Assembly (NCBI RefSeq): GCF_024204685.1
Contig: NZ_CP100350.1
Coordinates: forward strand, 2,024,501 to 2,088,500
DNA: 64,000 nt
Direction: 5' to 3'
Source of the DNA: Gilvimarinus sp. DA14
GTDB lineage: Bacteria > Pseudomonadota > Gammaproteobacteria > Pseudomonadales > Cellvibrionaceae
Positions 9,506 through 15,735 of the stretch are shown piece after piece; within the stretch, counting starts at the first letter, position 1; every line of letters starts with the position of its first letter. The notes beneath the pieces are model-generated. The model had not been told where the DNA came from. It searched no databases and saw nothing but the letters and a program-made list of their open reading frames with translations. A program made the position numbers and the translations under genes.

Positions 9506-9764
9506 GGTTGATTCTCTTTTTTAACAGCGAAGACTTGCGCTTTGTGATTAGCGTAGACGGGGAAATATACAGGTTTCTTGGGGCGGCGTCAGTTCAAGTG
9601 GTTGCATCGGACTCTTGAAAATACGGCATTCATTGCTCTTTCGGGGGTTTTCACTTCACCATCCACGGGAAAAACCCTCAACAACCAAAAAACTGACTCC
9701 GAAACCTATGATTGCCTATAGCTTCTTAATAGGGTAGCTGGGCGGGTATCGATTAATTTCAAAA

Positions 9765-10250
9765 TCAGTCCGCAATACAACTGCACTCGTTAATGATGAC
9801 GTGCCGAACAGAATCTGGCAGCCCCTTTAGCCCGGCCACTAAAAACTTAGGATACAAGTCATAATCACCAACGCTGCCTAAGGGAACCCAACGAAAAACC
9901 AAATTCACATCCTCTTCCACACCCTCGAAATCCACTTCAGGCTCAAAGTGTGGATAATCGTTCAAAGAAACCATGAAATAATTGGCCACCTCATGGCATC
10001 TCTCAGCTTCATGCTCAAAGAAATTTTCCGTATGCCAAACAAGCCTCTCAACGCGACATTTAACGCCTAGCTCTTCAAAAAGCTCCCTCTCGACAGCACC
10101 CACTGAAGACTCAAAGAGCTCAACCCGGCCACCCGGAAGCGCCCAAAAATCATCGCTCGCGGCTTTATGAATTAACACGTGCTCTCTGTAAATAACTACA
10201 GCCGCAGCCCTAAAACTAAAGCGGCCCTCGCTTGCATCAAAACAAATCAC
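9765..10250 (-). CDS. Nudix hydrolase
   Basis: The 161-aa protein contains a complete Nudix box: a glycine followed by RVELFE and seven residues later RELFEELGV, fitting G-x5-E-x7-R-E-U-x-E-E-x-G-U. Nudix enzymes cleave nucleoside diphosphates linked to another group; the substrate is not evident. The start is GTG, with GAGGTGA just upstream. It lies in the AT-richer accessory block and may be a former integron cassette, although no attC was found beside it. Confidence 0.88.
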   Translation of the reverse strand: MICFDASEGRFSFRAAAVVIYREHVLIHKAASDDFWALPGGRVELFESSVGAVERELFEELGVKCRVERLVWHTENFFEHEAERCHEVANYFMVSLNDYPHFEPEVDFEGVEEDVNLVFRWVPLGSVGDYDLYPKFLVAGLKGLPDSVRHVIINECSCIAD

Positions 10251-10445
10251 TTTTCACCTCAATCACAGCCAGCACTCGCAATACGCTTGTTCCGCACAGA
10301 AATCAAAGACTTGCCCCGGCTCTGTACTGACAAAGTGAAATATTGACGTAAAAAGAATGACTCGACTGTGCCTATTAAATGGACTTAAACCTAAACAGAC
10401 TAATTCAAGATGTTGTCCTTATTTCTTTAAACCTCCATGTTGCAC

Positions 10446-10871
10446 TCACCACCAAGGCGGCGCCGTTAATGAGGCCGAAAAACCGGCGCTTTGAATTTTT
10501 GACAGTAGGCTTTCATTTCTCACTAGACACATGCCTTCATGACCAACTGCACAGGCACTCCACTCTTTGTCTCCTTCAGGGTACAGTGCAATACTATCGC
10601 TGTTACACTTGAGCTTCGAGGCAAAGGATTTTAGCGTCAACATAAAATTAGATGTTGCAAGTAGCGAGCTGGTTCGCCTAGGTTTAGTCCCATCTTCGTA
10701 CGTTGTTATTGCTACCAGATTTTCGTGATCATTTAAAATAAGAATTCCCGCAAGATGTTTTATTTTCGACTCTGGGTATAGCCAAATAACCAACTCACAC
10801 ACTTCCACCTCGGATAGAAGCGCGAGCAATTCAAGCTGCCTCTTAAGCCCGCTCTCTTGAATATAAATCAT
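10446..10871 (-). CDS. Hypothetical protein, 141 aa
   Basis: No family is recognised. The N-terminal half is leucine-rich and alternates strand and helix (QLELLALLSEVEVCELVIWLYP). The middle has a possible beta meander (LAGILILNDHENLVAITTY), and the C-terminus ends PPWW. There is no signal peptide or membrane segment, and no strong ribosome-binding site. It sits between the Nudix gene and the protease gene, all on the minus strand, in AT-rich DNA typical of acquired genes. Coding status is probable rather than certain. Confidence 0.6.
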   Translation of the reverse strand: MIYIQESGLKRQLELLALLSEVEVCELVIWLYPESKIKHLAGILILNDHENLVAITTYEDGTKPRRTSSLLATSNFMLTLKSFASKLKCNSDSIALYPEGDKEWSACAVGHEGMCLVRNESLLSKIQSAGFSASLTAPPWW

Positions 10872-10970
10872 AAGACACCATTCAGAAACAACGTCCGCAC
10901 CAGCCTTAAAGGGGAGACAAAGGCCGACTACTACAGCTAGCTCCGACGCATAATTATTTTGTAATGTCCA

Positions 10971-11708
10971 CTAATCTTCTGGCGTTTGATCCGGCTTCGA
11001 ATTATCAATTACCTCCCTTAGCCAGGGGTAATGTGTAGACACACGAGAATAGTACTCTGAAACTCCGTAATGCCCCTCTTCAAATCCGTTACCCTTTTGA
11101 TACGCGCTGACGCCGGCAACGTAAAGTAGTCCGTCAATTTCCATCAGCGCAGGGCCACCGCTATCACCCGGCCCGCTGATCCCTTCCAGATTTGTCGCGG
11201 TTTCGGGTTTATCAAATAAGAATACGAGGTTGTATTGTGTAGCTTCAATCACCGTATTTCTTGCGCCGCGCAAATTACCATCCTCTCCGGCTAGGCCATC
11301 GCAGCCGTTACCGAAAACACCATTGCCAACGAATACAACGTTTCTGCCAAGCTCGTTTTTCTGGTTGTATAGGGCAATGGGTTTACCGTTGCGAACAGGA
11401 TTTTTCAGCTGGACCAGAGCAATATCACTGTCTGGATGGACAAAGGTTTGCTCAACCTGATACGGGACTTCGAGATGCAGTGCAGTTTCGAGACCGACGC
11501 CCTCCCCTCTCATACAATGCGCCGCCGTCAACAGCCAACCTGGCTCGACTAAGGTGGACATACAACCCCCGATATAGGCGACAGACGCAGCATACCGCGC
11601 GCCCAACTCCTGACATTCTTTATCATCCACATCATGTCGAGTGATGATTCCATGCGCCGGAGAGATTGTTAACAATGTAAGTAATGTTACGTATAGGGCT
11701 AACTTCAT
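10971..11708 (-). CDS. Secreted trypsin-like serine protease (S1 family)
   Basis: The 245-aa protein has a signal peptide (first about 20 residues, ending SPAHG) and then a chymotrypsin-fold domain starting IITRHDV. The catalytic triad is visible: His64 in TAAHC, Asp95 in DIALV, Ser183 in GPGDSGGPA. Several cysteines could form disulfides in the periplasm or outside the cell. Compact size and lack of accessory domains suggest a simple secreted protease. The 3' flank was examined for an attC site; none was convincing, but the 5' flank is attC 11747-11816. Confidence 0.88.
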   Translation of the reverse strand: MKLALYVTLLTLLTISPAHGIITRHDVDDKECQELGARYAASVAYIGGCMSTLVEPGWLLTAAHCMRGEGVGLETALHLEVPYQVEQTFVHPDSDIALVQLKNPVRNGKPIALYNQKNELGRNVVFVGNGVFGNGCDGLAGEDGNLRGARNTVIEATQYNLVFLFDKPETATNLEGISGPGDSGGPALMEIDGLLYVAGVSAYQKGNGFEEGHYGVSEYYSRVSTHYPWLREVIDNSKPDQTPED

Positions 11709-11746
11709 GTGGTATTTCCTTTACGTTTTATCTCTAGGATAGCTTG

Positions 11747-11816
11747 GGCTAACGCTTGGCTTTGCGGCGCATCGAAGCGGAGCGTAGGTGCGTCCGACAC
11801 CAGACACTGGTTACAC
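11747..11816 (-). repeat. attC recombination site between the 95-aa gene and the protease gene
   Basis: Read on the minus strand it begins GTGTAAC (R'' core) and ends AAGCGTTAGCC (R' core). Between them TGTCGGACGCA pairs with TGCGCCGCA, leaving an unpaired T and A: the extrahelical bases that mark the bottom strand of attC hairpins for IntI. The site is about 70 bases long, in the usual attC range. The TAA stop of the 95-aa gene lies inside the R'' core. Confidence 0.78.
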
Positions 11817-12098
11817 CGCATCCGTCAGTGCGGCAACGGCTTCAATAATTTTATCCCTTCTCAGTTCGTATTCACTACTCACTGGCTCTTGGCTACGAGT
11901 AGCCATAAAAAAGAGCTCCGAAGAGATACTCCTCAGTAGGTTAACCACTCTAGAAGATGGCCCAAGTCGGTTGTTCACCGCCCAACGGTCAATCGCACTT
12001 GAGGACAGTCCGAAGAGCTTTTCGTCAAGATCCAGTCTTGAGTTAACCATATCCAGAACATGTCTTTGAGTCGCCATTCGGCTAACAAACTCATCCAT
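11811..12098 (-). CDS. Small helical protein, third gene of the pentapeptide/nucleotidyltransferase cassette
   Basis: A 95-aa, probably all-helical, charged protein without a recognised domain or membrane segment. Its start overlaps the end of the nucleotidyltransferase gene by 8 bases, so the two are translationally coupled and probably work together. Its TAA stop lies within an attC core, as expected for the last gene of an integron cassette. A regulatory subunit, antitoxin or adaptor for the nucleotidyltransferase are possibilities, but none is shown by the sequence. Confidence 0.72.
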   Translation of the reverse strand: MDEFVSRMATQRHVLDMVNSRLDLDEKLFGLSSSAIDRWAVNNRLGPSSRVVNLLRSISSELFFMATRSQEPVSSEYELRRDKIIEAVAALTDAV

Positions 12099-12720
12099 TT
12101 AAATTTACCTCACGGCATAGTTCATCGATCCAAGATCGGCAGCGCTTCAACTCCGGCAATAGAATCGCCAGATCGATATCACCAATACTGTCCCCGGCTC
12201 CTCTCGTTGAAAGCAGGCGAGCCTGCATTAGCAAAGAGTAAACATTCTCATCAACATCCAGGCTTCTCGAGCCAAGCCTTCTCGCCGAATCCCTTCCGAA
12301 GGTTGGGCTGTCCATCCTCGAAAGCGAATAGCAGGTTGCGATGTTTCGCAAAGCTAGAAAAATCGTTGAAAGTTCAAACACTAGACTCGGCGAGCCTTTT
12401 TGAACAGACTGAAATGAGGATTCAAATATATCTCGAAATTTCAAGCAATCGGCTACTGCTCCCGAATATTTAGACGGCGCCCCCAAGCTCTTCAAAAAAT
12501 CAGCCCCATCAGCTGCGTAAATCAGGCGGCTCTCAAGAGAAAGATGCCAAGCGAATGCATTACCAGCTTTCCAGAGCTCAAGTATTCTCGCATACGAATA
12601 AATCGAAAATCTCTCAGGGTTGAGGCGAGAATCCCGACCTTCCACAAGGGCCAGCAGATCAACATCAGAGTCAACAGAAATGTCACCGCGACAAATTGAG
12701 CCAAAAGCGTAGATATGCAT
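12091..12720 (-). CDS. Pol-beta-superfamily nucleotidyltransferase
   Basis: The 209-aa protein opens with a nucleotidyltransferase active site: GSICRGDISVDSDVDLLAL (residues 7-25), matching GS-x(9-12)-D-x-D with Asp19 and Asp21 as metal ligands. The rest is largely helical. It contains IFLALRNIATC, faintly like the R-x4-6-H signature of HEPN domains but lacking the histidine. The family includes MNT antitoxins, aminoglycoside nucleotidyltransferases and AMPylating enzymes. Its start shares one base (TAATG) with the stop of the pentapeptide gene and its end overlaps the 95-aa gene. Confidence 0.82.
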   Translation of the reverse strand: MHIYAFGSICRGDISVDSDVDLLALVEGRDSRLNPERFSIYSYARILELWKAGNAFAWHLSLESRLIYAADGADFLKSLGAPSKYSGAVADCLKFRDIFESSFQSVQKGSPSLVFELSTIFLALRNIATCYSLSRMDSPTFGRDSARRLGSRSLDVDENVYSLLMQARLLSTRGAGDSIGDIDLAILLPELKRCRSWIDELCREVNLNG

Positions 12721-13559
12721 TATCGACGACTAAACCGTTTAACTAAAATCGACACCAAGCAGGCAAGCATTACATACCTCAAAGCCGCGATGCCTGCCAA
12801 TAGCAGACCTGAAAACCCATCTGGCTTAGCGACACCAAGGAATACTTGCGGAGCATTTTTTACTGCCTCAAAGTAACTGGTCAGTGAGTCTGCATCCTTT
12901 AAGAAATAAACCTCGCCCAATGCAATAGCCAACATTACCAAAAGCAACGTTCTAAGCAGCTTCATGAAGCTTTCACCATTCCCCCAGAACGCATCAAGCA
13001 ATACAAAATCAAGCCACTCTAAGAAAGCCTTAATTCGCGCTACACCTGGATAATGCTTTCGGTAATAGGCCTCGCGAGAGCGCCAAGCTTTATACAAATG
13101 AATACGACCGGCCTCAAGTTCAATTTTTATCGCCTTGTTTGCAGCAACTGAATTTCCGATTTGATGGAAGTTCACCCTAAGCGTTCTGGCAAATTTCTGC
13201 TGAAGGTTTTCCTTTCCGGGGCATCCTGTATCAAGAATTTCGGGCTCTACTTGCGTTTGGGAAAACTCTGCGTAATCAAACACACAGCCATCAAACTTAC
13301 TACCTCTAAGGTTTGAGTTAGTAAATTTACACCCAACAAATCTGCAAGAATCAAAAACACACTTATGCAAGTATGCTGAGTCGAAATGCGAGTAGCTGAA
13401 ATCGCAATCTGTGAAGCGCTTCTTCTTGGCAACCAAACGTTCAAATTGTTTATTTCTCAGGTTTACGCCTTTAAGGTCATGGGCGATAGCTTGGTCTGGG
13501 ATAGTTTCCCTGCTCGTAGGGCGAAAATGATCATTCATGCCGTGGGACTCATCCTTCAT
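12720..13559 (-). CDS. Membrane-anchored pentapeptide-repeat protein
   Basis: Residues about 45-105 contain roughly ten A(D/N)LXX-type pentapeptides (FTDCDFSYSHFDSAYLHKC and following), which fold into a right-handed beta helix. After a helical linker there are two hydrophobic segments near the C-terminus (LLRTLLLVMLAIALGEVYFL, then GLLLAGIAALRYVMLACLVS). The protein is thus a cytoplasmic beta-helix tethered to the inner membrane, an arrangement seen among accessory and defence genes. The first ATG lies 3 bases from the preceding attC core; a start 7 codons downstream (13538), preceded by AAGGATGAG, is an alternative. Confidence 0.83.
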   Translation of the reverse strand: MKDESHGMNDHFRPTSRETIPDQAIAHDLKGVNLRNKQFERLVAKKKRFTDCDFSYSHFDSAYLHKCVFDSCRFVGCKFTNSNLRGSKFDGCVFDYAEFSQTQVEPEILDTGCPGKENLQQKFARTLRVNFHQIGNSVAANKAIKIELEAGRIHLYKAWRSREAYYRKHYPGVARIKAFLEWLDFVLLDAFWGNGESFMKLLRTLLLVMLAIALGEVYFLKDADSLTSYFEAVKNAPQVFLGVAKPDGFSGLLLAGIAALRYVMLACLVSILVKRFSRR

Positions 13560-13562
13560 ACG

Positions 13563-13622
13563 GTATAACGCAAGAACTCACCGGCGCACTTTAGTGCGTC
13601 CGAGTGACGCGGTTTGTTAAAC
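13563..13622 (-). repeat. attC recombination site between the GHKL gene and the pentapeptide gene
   Basis: On the minus strand the site starts GTTTAAC (R'', a perfect RYYYAAC) and ends GCGTTATAC (R'). The inner arms TCACTCGGACGCACT and AGTGCGCCGGTGA pair fully except for an extra T and an extra A on one strand, the extrahelical bases used by IntI to choose the bottom strand. Total length is 60 bases, the same as classical attC sites. The TAA stop of the GHKL gene lies in the R'' core and the next cassette gene starts 3 bases beyond R'. Confidence 0.85.
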
Positions 13623-15305
13623 TACGGAATCCGAAGTTCTAGGCGTAAATTCTATATCCAGTATTTCTTTTAGGTACCCTTTCAAACAAAAAACCTCAAT
13701 TTTATGAGCTTTTTTAGGATTGTCTAAAAAGTACTTGGTATAAGACTCGTTCGAATCAGGGGCTATTATTTTCATTTTCCGCTCCTCCCCGTTTACATCC
13801 TTCAGGACATCATCGTGCTTTATATCCGATTCCCAGCAAACAATGCTGTGTAGATTCTCAAAGGAATGATTGAAGTTTCCCGTCAACGTTCTTTTAAATT
13901 CTACATAGAATAGGCGAGCACTAGATATAGGCGTTTTTTTATCCCCCTTGGCAATAACATCTATCCCCTCATGGGTGTCGTAATCAACAACATGAAATGG
14001 AAAGAGGTCTGGCCTCTTTTGTTCGAGCAATAGAAATATTGAGAATACTCCACTTTCTCGTTCAGGCTCCACAAGCGTAAGCCCTTCATAAACAGCAACG
14101 TTTGACCGATTAACCTTCTTAATACGCCATTCAAAGTTCTTCTTTTCTTTTTCCGTTGTTTGGTATGCCTGAGCCTCATCTTCAAGCCATTCCAATGAAG
14201 TCCACTCATCACTCTTTATAATTTCCTCATATATTTTCTTTACCTCCTGCTGGAGGTCCTGAAGAACTTCCGAAGGAGTATTATCTATAGATCCTCTGTT
14301 AGCTGTGAGCCGCAGATCCTGGCAATTAATAAAGGCATGGAATTTTGTATACTCAGAACCTTTAAAGGTGATCCATTCATTCTTTCTCTGGATTGGTATA
14401 AAATCTTTGCAAACCCACAACCCGTATCGCTCTTGGATAGTATAGGCACCAGTTGGTGCTGAATATCCTGGCCTTCTTAGCATCGCATTATAAGAATACT
14501 TTCTATACTTTCCTTCCACACAAAAGATAGCGTTGAACCGAATCTCAGGATAGTTTTTAAGGCTTCCAGTTCTAACTATCCTCTTGGAGTAATGATCAGG
14601 GGCTTTTACCAAATGCTCTTCGAACAGCTTATTTATATCTTTGCTGTCCTCTGGGAAGTAATGGCCTTGCTTAATTGTTTCAAACTCTTCCTCACCCAAT
14701 CCCTTTAGCTCGAGGGTTACAGGGGTCTTGAAATCAAAGAACTGGTTCTCTACCGATCCATGCTTTGTAAACCAAGAAATATAGTCCTTCAAAATATCGT
14801 GAGTAAACTTATCTCGTCGATTGTTGTTGTAACCCCAAACTACTATTTTCGTTCCTTTCTGAACTCCCTCTTTACTAACCACGTGAGCAACTGGTATCTC
14901 TCGGTCGAAAAGTTTCCGAAATGGAGAGTCCATAGTGGCGTGTAAGCCATTGTTCCCATCTGATGTTTCCACCTCAATCTTTTCGCTATTGAAATAGACT
15001 TTCGTCCCATGGCCTTTCTCACCAATTGATTCGATATCATCCCTTCGGGTAGAGTTTCCCAGGTCGAAAAAGTTCTGCAATTGCTCAGAAGTCATTCCGG
15101 CGCCGTTATCAGAAATCTCGATTTTCAAAACGGATTCGCCGTATTTTTTTACGACGTCAAAGCAAATTTTAATTTTTGAAGCCTTGGCGTCATAAGAATT
15201 GCTAACCGCCTCTCTCACCAAATCCAAAGGATTAGAAAAATCATTGGCAATTTCAATAAACTCTTGAGTTTCATCAACAGCAGGTCTGATTTCGAACGAA
15301 TTCAT
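13617..15305 (-). CDS. GHKL (MutL/MORC-like) ATPase with putative C-terminal PD-(D/E)XK nuclease domain
   Basis: The 562-aa protein has a full Bergerat ATP-binding fold: N-box Glu32-x3-Asn36 (LVREAVSNSYDAKA), DNGAGM at 66-71, and the lid G95-EKGHG-T. The middle resembles the transducer region of MutL/MORC/Hsp90-like ATPases. Near the C-terminus Asp449 (HEGIDVI) and Glu469-Phe-Lys471 (FYVEFKRTL) fit the D...(D/E)xK spacing of restriction-endonuclease folds. ATP-driven DNA recognition coupled to cleavage is therefore plausible, as described for bacterial MORC-type ATPases linked to restriction systems. ATG 15305 is preferred over an upstream start at 15395. The gene is AT-rich. Confidence 0.85.
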   Translation of the reverse strand: MNSFEIRPAVDETQEFIEIANDFSNPLDLVREAVSNSYDAKASKIKICFDVVKKYGESVLKIEISDNGAGMTSEQLQNFFDLGNSTRRDDIESIGEKGHGTKVYFNSEKIEVETSDGNNGLHATMDSPFRKLFDREIPVAHVVSKEGVQKGTKIVVWGYNNNRRDKFTHDILKDYISWFTKHGSVENQFFDFKTPVTLELKGLGEEEFETIKQGHYFPEDSKDINKLFEEHLVKAPDHYSKRIVRTGSLKNYPEIRFNAIFCVEGKYRKYSYNAMLRRPGYSAPTGAYTIQERYGLWVCKDFIPIQRKNEWITFKGSEYTKFHAFINCQDLRLTANRGSIDNTPSEVLQDLQQEVKKIYEEIIKSDEWTSLEWLEDEAQAYQTTEKEKKNFEWRIKKVNRSNVAVYEGLTLVEPERESGVFSIFLLLEQKRPDLFPFHVVDYDTHEGIDVIAKGDKKTPISSARLFYVEFKRTLTGNFNHSFENLHSIVCWESDIKHDDVLKDVNGEERKMKIIAPDSNESYTKYFLDNPKKAHKIEVFCLKGYLKEILDIEFTPRTSDSVV

Positions 15306-15652
15306 CTCATCTCTCGGTTGGTTGTATTTTTGTTTAACATTTGTATATCGCGCATGCGCATTATCCTTCGATGAAAAACTCCAAAAAAGAGGCACAAGCC
15401 TTTGAATTATCAGTCATTTAAGCCGCTTACGGGCTTCAGGAAGGGCGAACAGAACGCGCGAAGAGTGATCTTGTTATCTAACCTTCCAAACTGGTTAAAT
15501 GCCTGACTATAAAGCTTTTTATAAAATTTGAAAACCGCAAAGCGAGCAAGCGCCTATAGCAAACCGCGCACACAATCGAAAAGCTTACCACTAGAGCACA
15601 AACAAACGCTTTAGCATCAGACCTCAGACGTCCAGCATCAGACACCTCAAAT
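15306..15652. other. Non-coding stretch upstream of the GHKL cassette
   Basis: No gene is supported between the GHKL start and the ppc terminator; open frames here are short and have no recognisable content. It contains a close pair of integron core-like heptamers, ATCTAAC at 15476-15482 and GTTAAAT at 15494-15500, only 11 bases apart. These could be a remnant cassette boundary but lack attC arms. It also carries the motif CATCAGACCTCAGACGTC at 15615-15632, which recurs almost exactly at 34471-34488. Confidence 0.6.
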
Positions 15653-15688
15653 AAAAAAAGAGGAGACAACCCAAAGGCCATCTCCCCT
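15653..15688 (-). terminator. Intrinsic terminator of ppc
   Basis: On the minus strand AGGGGAGA pairs with TCTCCTCT (one G-T pair) across a 14-base loop, followed by seven T residues. It lies about 50 bases after the ppc stop codon. Confidence 0.72.
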
Positions 15689-15735
15689 CCTTTCCATCAA
15701 CCGTTCACCATAACCCGTGAACCGTCAACCAACCA

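What the first reader, a model, noticed from the sequence alone, without database searches (positions are those of the whole stretch)
13617..15305. Cassette-borne GHKL ATPase with a C-terminal PD-(D/E)XK-like nuclease motif
An intact Bergerat ATP site plus Asp449...Glu469-x-Lys471 at the C-terminus suggests an ATP-gated nuclease. MutL/MORC-type GHKL ATPases linked to restriction systems are known in bacteria, but a compact single-gene version on an integron cassette would be a candidate anti-phage factor.
Basis: partly seen in the sequence, partly recalled or inferred. Interest (0 to 1): 0.78.

Follow-up and report, generated by a model that had tools for sequence, protein, structure and literature searches.

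The report
Integron-borne ATPase–nuclease, probable phage defence
A rare mobile bacterial gene, carried here on an integron cassette, encodes an ATP-binding clamp fused to a probable DNA-cutting domain; it looks like a one-gene anti-virus weapon similar to, but not the same as, one already shown to block phages in cholera bacteria.

Summary
Window 13620-15305, on the MINUS strand, encodes a 562-aa protein with an intact GHKL ATP site, and E417, D449, E469 and K471 are invariant in ten homologues (48-98% identical). A model of residues 399-562 (pLDDT 84) most resembles EndoMS/NucS (Z 5.7). Fourteen of 24 structural rows are restriction-endonuclease-fold nucleases, but each Z is low. No Pfam, PDB-sequence or PADLOC family covers the C-terminus.

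The gene is on an integron cassette. A block 97% identical to Marinobacterium runs exactly from a GTTAAAC junction (15338) to the attC (about 13566), with different neighbours on each side. Two further genomes also carry it between attC-like sites. The host lacks the integron integrase; six of seven congeners have it. Relatives sit on a plasmid, a phage contig, beside restriction-modification genes and in a defence island.

Best reading: an ATP-controlled DNA nuclease, spread as a one-gene anti-phage or anti-plasmid system. No activity has been shown. The design is not new: paraMORC3 (predicted 2008) and VcSduA (anti-phage, 2025) have it. Here the nuclease domain is not recognisably VcSduA's DUF4263, so I call it a new variant. 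Haloarchaeal relatives have lost the nuclease residues and lie next to tRNA-guanine-transglycosylase genes.

The parts
13620..15305 (-). CDS, 562 aa GHKL ATPase with C-terminal nuclease-like domain (stop codon 13617-13619)
14826..15239 (-). GHKL (Bergerat) ATPase domain, about residues 23-160; E32, N36, D66xGxG70, G95xKGxGxK102
   Evidence: Pfam; invariant in 13 homologues apart from the residue at position 96; full-length model matches TRAP1, MutL and Topo VI at Z about 15
14112..14825 (-). Middle region, residues 161-398, probably the S5-like transducer; R337 invariant down to haloarchaea
   Evidence: no sequence family match; low model confidence
13620..14111 (-). C-terminal nuclease-like domain, residues 399-562; E417 (14055-14057), D449 (13959-13961), E469 (13899-13901), K471 (13893-13895)
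   Evidence: invariant residues; model pLDDT 83.9, pTM 0.81; EndoMS and other RE-fold structures in VIA-align
15332..15338 (-). GTTAAAC, 5' junction of the cassette (R'-type core site)
   Evidence: start of the 97% identity block shared with Marinobacterium L002
13563..13622 (-). attC site of the cassette: R'' GTTTAAC 13622-13616, R' GTTATAC 13569-13563
   Evidence: end of the shared block; hairpin on the bottom strand, z -1.9; matching attC-like sites in L002 and L004, weaker in L005
13569..15338 (-). whole gene cassette, about 1.77 kb, 41% G+C against 55-60% around it
11747..11816 (-). second, weaker attC-like site ending the next cassette (pentapeptide-repeat protein 12720-13559, nucleotidyltransferase 12091-12720, 95-aa ORF 11811-12098)
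   Evidence: sequence; fold z only -0.6; Pfam

Best explanation
A single-gene, ATP-controlled DNA nuclease carried as a mobile accessory gene, most likely an anti-phage or anti-plasmid defence protein. Proposed working, with status of each step. (1) The N-terminal GHKL domain binds ATP: fold and motifs shown, binding inferred. (2) ATP binding closes a dimer clamp through the middle domain, as in MutL, Hsp90 and MORC proteins: inferred from the families; R337 may be the catalytic-loop arginine. (3) The closed clamp holds DNA and switches on the C-terminal RE-fold nuclease (E417, D449, E469-x-K471) to cut invading DNA: fold supported, activity and gating inferred from VcSduA. (4) Integrons, plasmids and phages spread the gene between phyla: shown by sequence.
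For: Intact GHKL motifs. Fold matches to TRAP1, MutL and Topo VI at Z about 15. Invariant E-D-ExK set. C-terminal model with EndoMS, AspBHI, MspJI, NucC, HamA, Cap4, McrC and Avs3 among the best matches. Purifying selection, dN/dS 0.057. Rare and patchy: 2 of 100 genomes of its own family, 1 of 398 genomes of its phylum with a full-length match. Cassette transfer across gammaproteobacterial families. Relatives in a defence island (L009), next to an EcoO109I-type RM system (L005) and near an M5C/Vsr pair (L010). Published precedent: VcSduA, where E27A or K557A abolishes defence.
Against: No activity has been shown for any member. Several homologues (L003, L006, L007, L008) have no defence neighbours. 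The structural Z scores of the C-terminal domain are individually low (5.7 and below), and Foldseek alone found nothing significant. The middle domain is poorly modelled. PADLOC has no matching model.
Confidence: 0.6

Rival explanations
1. A DNA-repair or mismatch-type nuclease: a MutL-like ATPase with an EndoMS/NucS-like cutting domain, carried as an accessory repair function rather than defence.
For: Closest solved sequences are MutL and MORC; best C-terminal structural match is EndoMS, a mismatch endonuclease.
Against: Rare, patchy and mobile rather than core; some relatives lie among RM and defence genes. No MutS-type partner was recognised in the loci read.
Confidence: 0.12
2. An accessory component of linked or unlinked restriction-modification or DNA-modification systems, not self-sufficient; the ATPase remodels DNA for a partner enzyme.
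For: MORC and paraMORC proteins are mostly RM components. L005 has an RM system next door. Haloarchaeal relatives abut a TGT gene, with DpdJ- and DpdK-like genes beside one of them.
Against: In the window, L002 and L004 it travels alone as a one-gene cassette with no constant partner.
Confidence: 0.15
3. The C-terminal domain is an RE-fold relic or DNA-binding module without cutting activity; the protein works as an ATP-driven DNA clamp or silencer.
For: Haloarchaeal homologues keep the ATPase but have lost D449, E469 and K471, so the ATPase can be kept without the nuclease residues.
Against: All four catalytic-type residues are invariant in the ten bacterial and viral sequences of A3.
Confidence: 0.1

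Closest known systems
VcSduA (GHKL-Shedu, Shedu type I-D; V. cholerae WASA lineage; PMC12137116)
   Same: Single gene, N-terminal GHKL ATPase, clamp-like middle domain, C-terminal PD-(D/E)xK nuclease; shown to defend against phages, needing both active sites.
   Different: VcSduA's nuclease is DUF4263. This protein has no DUF4263 match in Pfam, and profile comparison with SduA_C sequences found here gives probability 0.5%. A GHKL-SduA_C protein (L052) aligns only over the GHKL domain (29% identity, E 5e-9).
paraMORC3 family (Iyer, Abhiman and Aravind 2008; PMC2292703)
   Same: GHKL plus S5 plus C-terminal RE-fold domain with E-D-ExK; a standalone subset in proteobacteria and Bacteroidetes.
MORC and paraMORC1/2/4/5 ATPases of RM systems
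   Same: GHKL ATPase related to MutL and MORC.
   Different: The MORC-defining S5 motif GhXhhpXXRhl and the paraMORC2 ExxxH motif are absent.
EndoMS/NucS nuclease
   Same: Best structural match of the C-terminal domain, Z 5.7, 3.4 A over 89 residues.
   Different: EndoMS has no GHKL domain; 12% identity; Z is below the level that proves kinship.
BbrUII/HgiDII family restriction enzymes (NF050001)
   Same: GHKL N-terminus, E 2.9e-9 over residues 23-164.
   Different: 36 bits against a cut-off of 550; no match outside the GHKL domain.

Membership tests
GHKL ATPase superfamily | Four Bergerat motifs and GHKL fold | tested here: met
PD-(D/E)XK / RE-fold nucleases | E-D-ExK residues conserved in family | tested here: met
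   E417, D449, E469 and K471 invariant in 10 of 10; lost in haloarchaeal relatives
PD-(D/E)XK / RE-fold nucleases | RE fold of the C-terminal domain | tested here: inconclusive
   14 of 24 VIA-align rows, including ranks 1-4, are RE-fold nucleases, but the best Z is 5.7; Foldseek alone gave none. Strongly suggestive.
PD-(D/E)XK / RE-fold nucleases | Metal-dependent DNA cleavage | not testable with these tools
   needs biochemistry
Shedu (SduA_C, DUF4263) | DUF4263 nuclease domain | tested here: not met
   no Pfam match at E up to 10; hhalign probability 0.5%. A common distant origin of the RE folds is not excluded.
paraMORC3 | GHKL + C-terminal E-D-ExK domain | tested here: met
paraMORC3 | S5 domain between them | tested here: inconclusive
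   fold matches to Hsp90 and MutL extend to about residue 445 in some rows, but pLDDT there is low
paraMORC3 | Sequence kinship with the 2008 members | not tested
   their sequences were not to hand
MORC | GhXhhpXXRhl motif in the S5 domain | tested here: not met
   motif absent
Integron gene cassette | Single ORF bounded by core sites and attC, with different neighbours in other genomes | tested here: met
Complete integron | IntI in the same genome | tested here: not met
   no TIGR02249 match over cut-off in the host; 6 of 7 congeners have one
Anti-phage defence system | Protection against phage | not testable with these tools
   phage challenge needed

The most novel reading that the evidence does not exclude
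A separate class of GHKL-driven effector, not Shedu, in which a MutL-like clamp senses an abnormal DNA state (mismatch, branch or modified base) and triggers an EndoMS-like nuclease. In haloarchaea the same ATPase has shed the catalytic residues and been paired with a TGT-like enzyme of a 7-deazaguanine DNA-modification locus, so the ATPase would be an exchangeable sensor for DNA modification and restriction.
Probability: 0.15. Interest if true: 0.75.

Novelty: new variant of a known kind. Interest (0 to 1): 0.5.

Why it matters
If it restricts phages, it extends the GHKL-plus-nuclease design, proven only for VcSduA as far as I found, to a second nuclease type, and adds a 1.8-kb single-gene system to the defence genes that integrons carry. 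The paired active sites (E32; D449, E469, K471) and natural haloarchaeal variants that lack the nuclease residues make the question 'does the ATPase gate the nuclease?' directly testable.

Tried and rejected
Rfam scan of the window: nothing. Phage records and E. coli genomes: no match. IMG/VR search with the single protein: nothing; with the alignment: two loci. Full-length AlphaFold with 8 sequences: pLDDT 58.6, poor outside the N-terminus, so the C-terminal domain was modelled alone. Foldseek on that model against PDB and BFVD: nothing at E below 0.001. PDB and Pfam profile searches of the middle and C-terminal regions: nothing convincing. Membership in Shedu: rejected for lack of DUF4263 similarity. 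MORC membership: motif absent. The second attC-like site (11747-11816) and the L005 site do not fold better than shuffled sequence, so those boundaries rest on core-site letters only. My suspicion that LxANR (R337) matches the Hsp90 catalytic loop was not confirmed by profile search. The IntI search hit only matches far below the cut-off in the host, of the kind that also ring in genomes without integrons. The Gu et al. Shedu paper is not in the library.

Full report
WHAT IS THERE. The stretch 13617-15305 read on the minus strand gives an open frame of 562 residues from an ATG at 15305; the plus strand is closed by many stops. The whole genome is held as one contig of 3.96 Mb, and the gene occurs there once. 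Pfam finds HATPase_c_3 (E 1.1e-12) and HATPase_c (8.9e-8) over residues 29-122 and nothing convincing elsewhere; PADLOC has no model for it.

HOMOLOGUES. One scan of 84,980 species genomes returned nine loci (54-98% identity over the full length), in Gammaproteobacteria, Chlorobiota, Bacteroidota, Thermodesulfobacteriota, Zixiibacteriota, Verrucomicrobiota and UBP11; L009 is frameshifted and L007 has one stop. A Caballeronia plasmid carries a 77% copy, and two haloarchaeal plasmids carry 28-30% relatives. IMG/VR gave two more (57% and 47%). The 57% copy lies on a 36.5-kb viral contig between a gene with a tail-fibre-J match and another with tail-assembly similarity. The gene is rare: of 398 genomes of the phylum only its own gave a full-length match, the other 32 hits being short GHKL matches; 2 of 100 genomes of its own family have it.

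ATPASE. All bacterial and archaeal homologues keep E32, N36, D39, D66, G68, G70 and the G95-x-KGHGTK glycine-rich loop. The full-length model, poor overall (pLDDT 58.6), still matches TRAP1/Hsp90, MutL and topoisomerase VI at Z about 15. The nearest solved sequences are MutL and MORC. R337 in an LxANR motif is invariant in all 13 sequences. It could be the catalytic-loop arginine of the S5-type transducer; that is my inference, and profile searches did not confirm it.

C-TERMINUS. In ten bacterial and viral sequences E417, D449, E469 and K471 are all invariant: the E-D-ExK pattern of restriction-endonuclease folds. No Pfam family covers the domain. Modelled alone with ten sequences it gives pLDDT 83.9 and pTM 0.81, with a helix (starting at E417), then strands, D449 in the second and E469-x-K471 in the third. 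Foldseek finds nothing significant. The second-look aligner ranks EndoMS first (Z 5.7, 3.4 A over 89 residues), followed by AspBHI and MspJI; NucC, HamA, Cap4, McrC, TSEN and Avs3 also appear. By my knowledge of these folds 14 of 24 rows are RE-fold nucleases. Single Z values this low prove nothing, so I treat the fold as strongly suggested by motif, topology and the company of hits together, about 85% likely. In the haloarchaeal relatives all of these residues are replaced while the ATPase is kept.

CASSETTE. The window and Marinobacterium alkalitolerans share a block of 97% DNA identity that begins exactly at GTTAAAC (15338) and ends in the attC (about 13566); both flanks differ. In Marinobacterium an attC-like sequence lies immediately upstream. 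In Exilibacterium, attC sites lie on both sides (fold z -3.0 and -3.8) and a reverse transcriptase gene with a weak group II maturase match follows. In Desulfaltia a GTTAGAC core lies upstream and a TAACAA-type start downstream, but the hairpin there is not better than shuffled. The window attC folds moderately well (z -1.9). The host has no integron integrase above the curated cut-off, while six of seven congeners do, so the array is a cluster of cassettes that has lost its integrase. In two congeners the interval between ppc and the 154-aa gene holds 7-8 kb of quite different genes: the site is variable. The cassette is 41% G+C against 55-60% nearby, and its closest relatives are in another gammaproteobacterial family and on a Burkholderiales plasmid rather than in Exilibacterium, which falls in the host's own GTDB family. 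dN/dS against Marinobacterium is 0.057, with 37 of 47 differences at third positions: the protein is kept under selection.

NEIGHBOURS OF HOMOLOGUES. L009 is a defence island: type I methylase and specificity genes, a DUF1016-type nuclease candidate, a PtuA/PtuB-like pair and a weak SIR2-like match. L005 has a methylase and an EcoO109I-family restriction enzyme next door. L010 has a cytosine methylase and Vsr within 4-8 kb. L003, L006, L007 and L008 show no such genes. No statistical enrichment test was made. In Haladaptatus the gene follows directly on a TGT gene, near DpdJ-like (E 2e-47) and DpdK-like (9e-12) genes; in Natrinema it also follows a TGT gene, one with weak DpdA similarity. All these Dpd matches are far below the curated cut-offs.

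WHAT IT WORKS LIKE, AND WHAT IT IS. It works like VcSduA: a GHKL ATPase with a PD-(D/E)xK nuclease in one gene, which protects against phages and needs both active sites (PMC12137116). Iyer et al. had predicted this architecture in 2008 as paraMORC3, including a standalone subset (PMC2292703). It is not a Shedu protein by the defining domain: no DUF4263 match and hhalign probability 0.5%; a GHKL-SduA_C protein aligns only in the ATPase. It lacks the MORC motif. Whether it belongs to the original paraMORC3 set could not be tested. Integrons are known to carry anti-phage genes (review PMC12409362), so the setting also fits.

VERDICT. The most likely function is an ATP-controlled nuclease acting as a one-gene anti-phage or anti-plasmid system (0.6). 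Nuclease activity, gating and defence remain to be shown. Novelty: a new variant of a known kind.

Noticed in passing
L018 10923-13539 and L019 10943-13545 (haloarchaeal plasmids): 28-30% relatives of the ATPase sit directly downstream of a tRNA-guanine transglycosylase gene and have lost the nuclease residues; in L018, DpdJ- and DpdK-like genes are nearby, in L019 the TGT has weak DpdA similarity. Possibly a divergent 7-deazaguanine DNA-modification locus.
   Followed up: partly
L039 7965-9698: A 57% homologue is carried on a 36.5-kb viral contig between tail genes.
   Followed up: partly
window 9506-15735 (between ppc and the 154-aa gene): Variable site in the genus: two congeners carry 7-8 kb of different genes between the same flanking genes (L059, L060).
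   Followed up: partly
window 11811-13559: Adjacent cassette-like unit with a pentapeptide-repeat protein, a nucleotidyltransferase-like ORF and a 95-aa ORF; the NTase and the small ORF overlap by a few bases like a two-gene module.
   Followed up: no
window 9765-11708: Further low-G+C genes in the same interval: trypsin-like protease (10971-11708), a 141-aa ORF with no Pfam match, and a NUDIX hydrolase (9765-10250).
   Followed up: no
G000:C1:1201012-1201488 (L046), outside the window: The same genome carries a protein with an SduA_C (DUF4263) domain (E 2.8e-26), next to a transposase-like ORF.
   Followed up: no
L004 11993-13459: Reverse transcriptase with weak group II maturase match just after the attC of the Exilibacterium copy, consistent with a group IIC-attC intron.
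   Followed up: no
L052 1192-3171: A 659-aa GHKL protein with a weak SduA_C match, a VcSduA-like architecture.
   Followed up: partly
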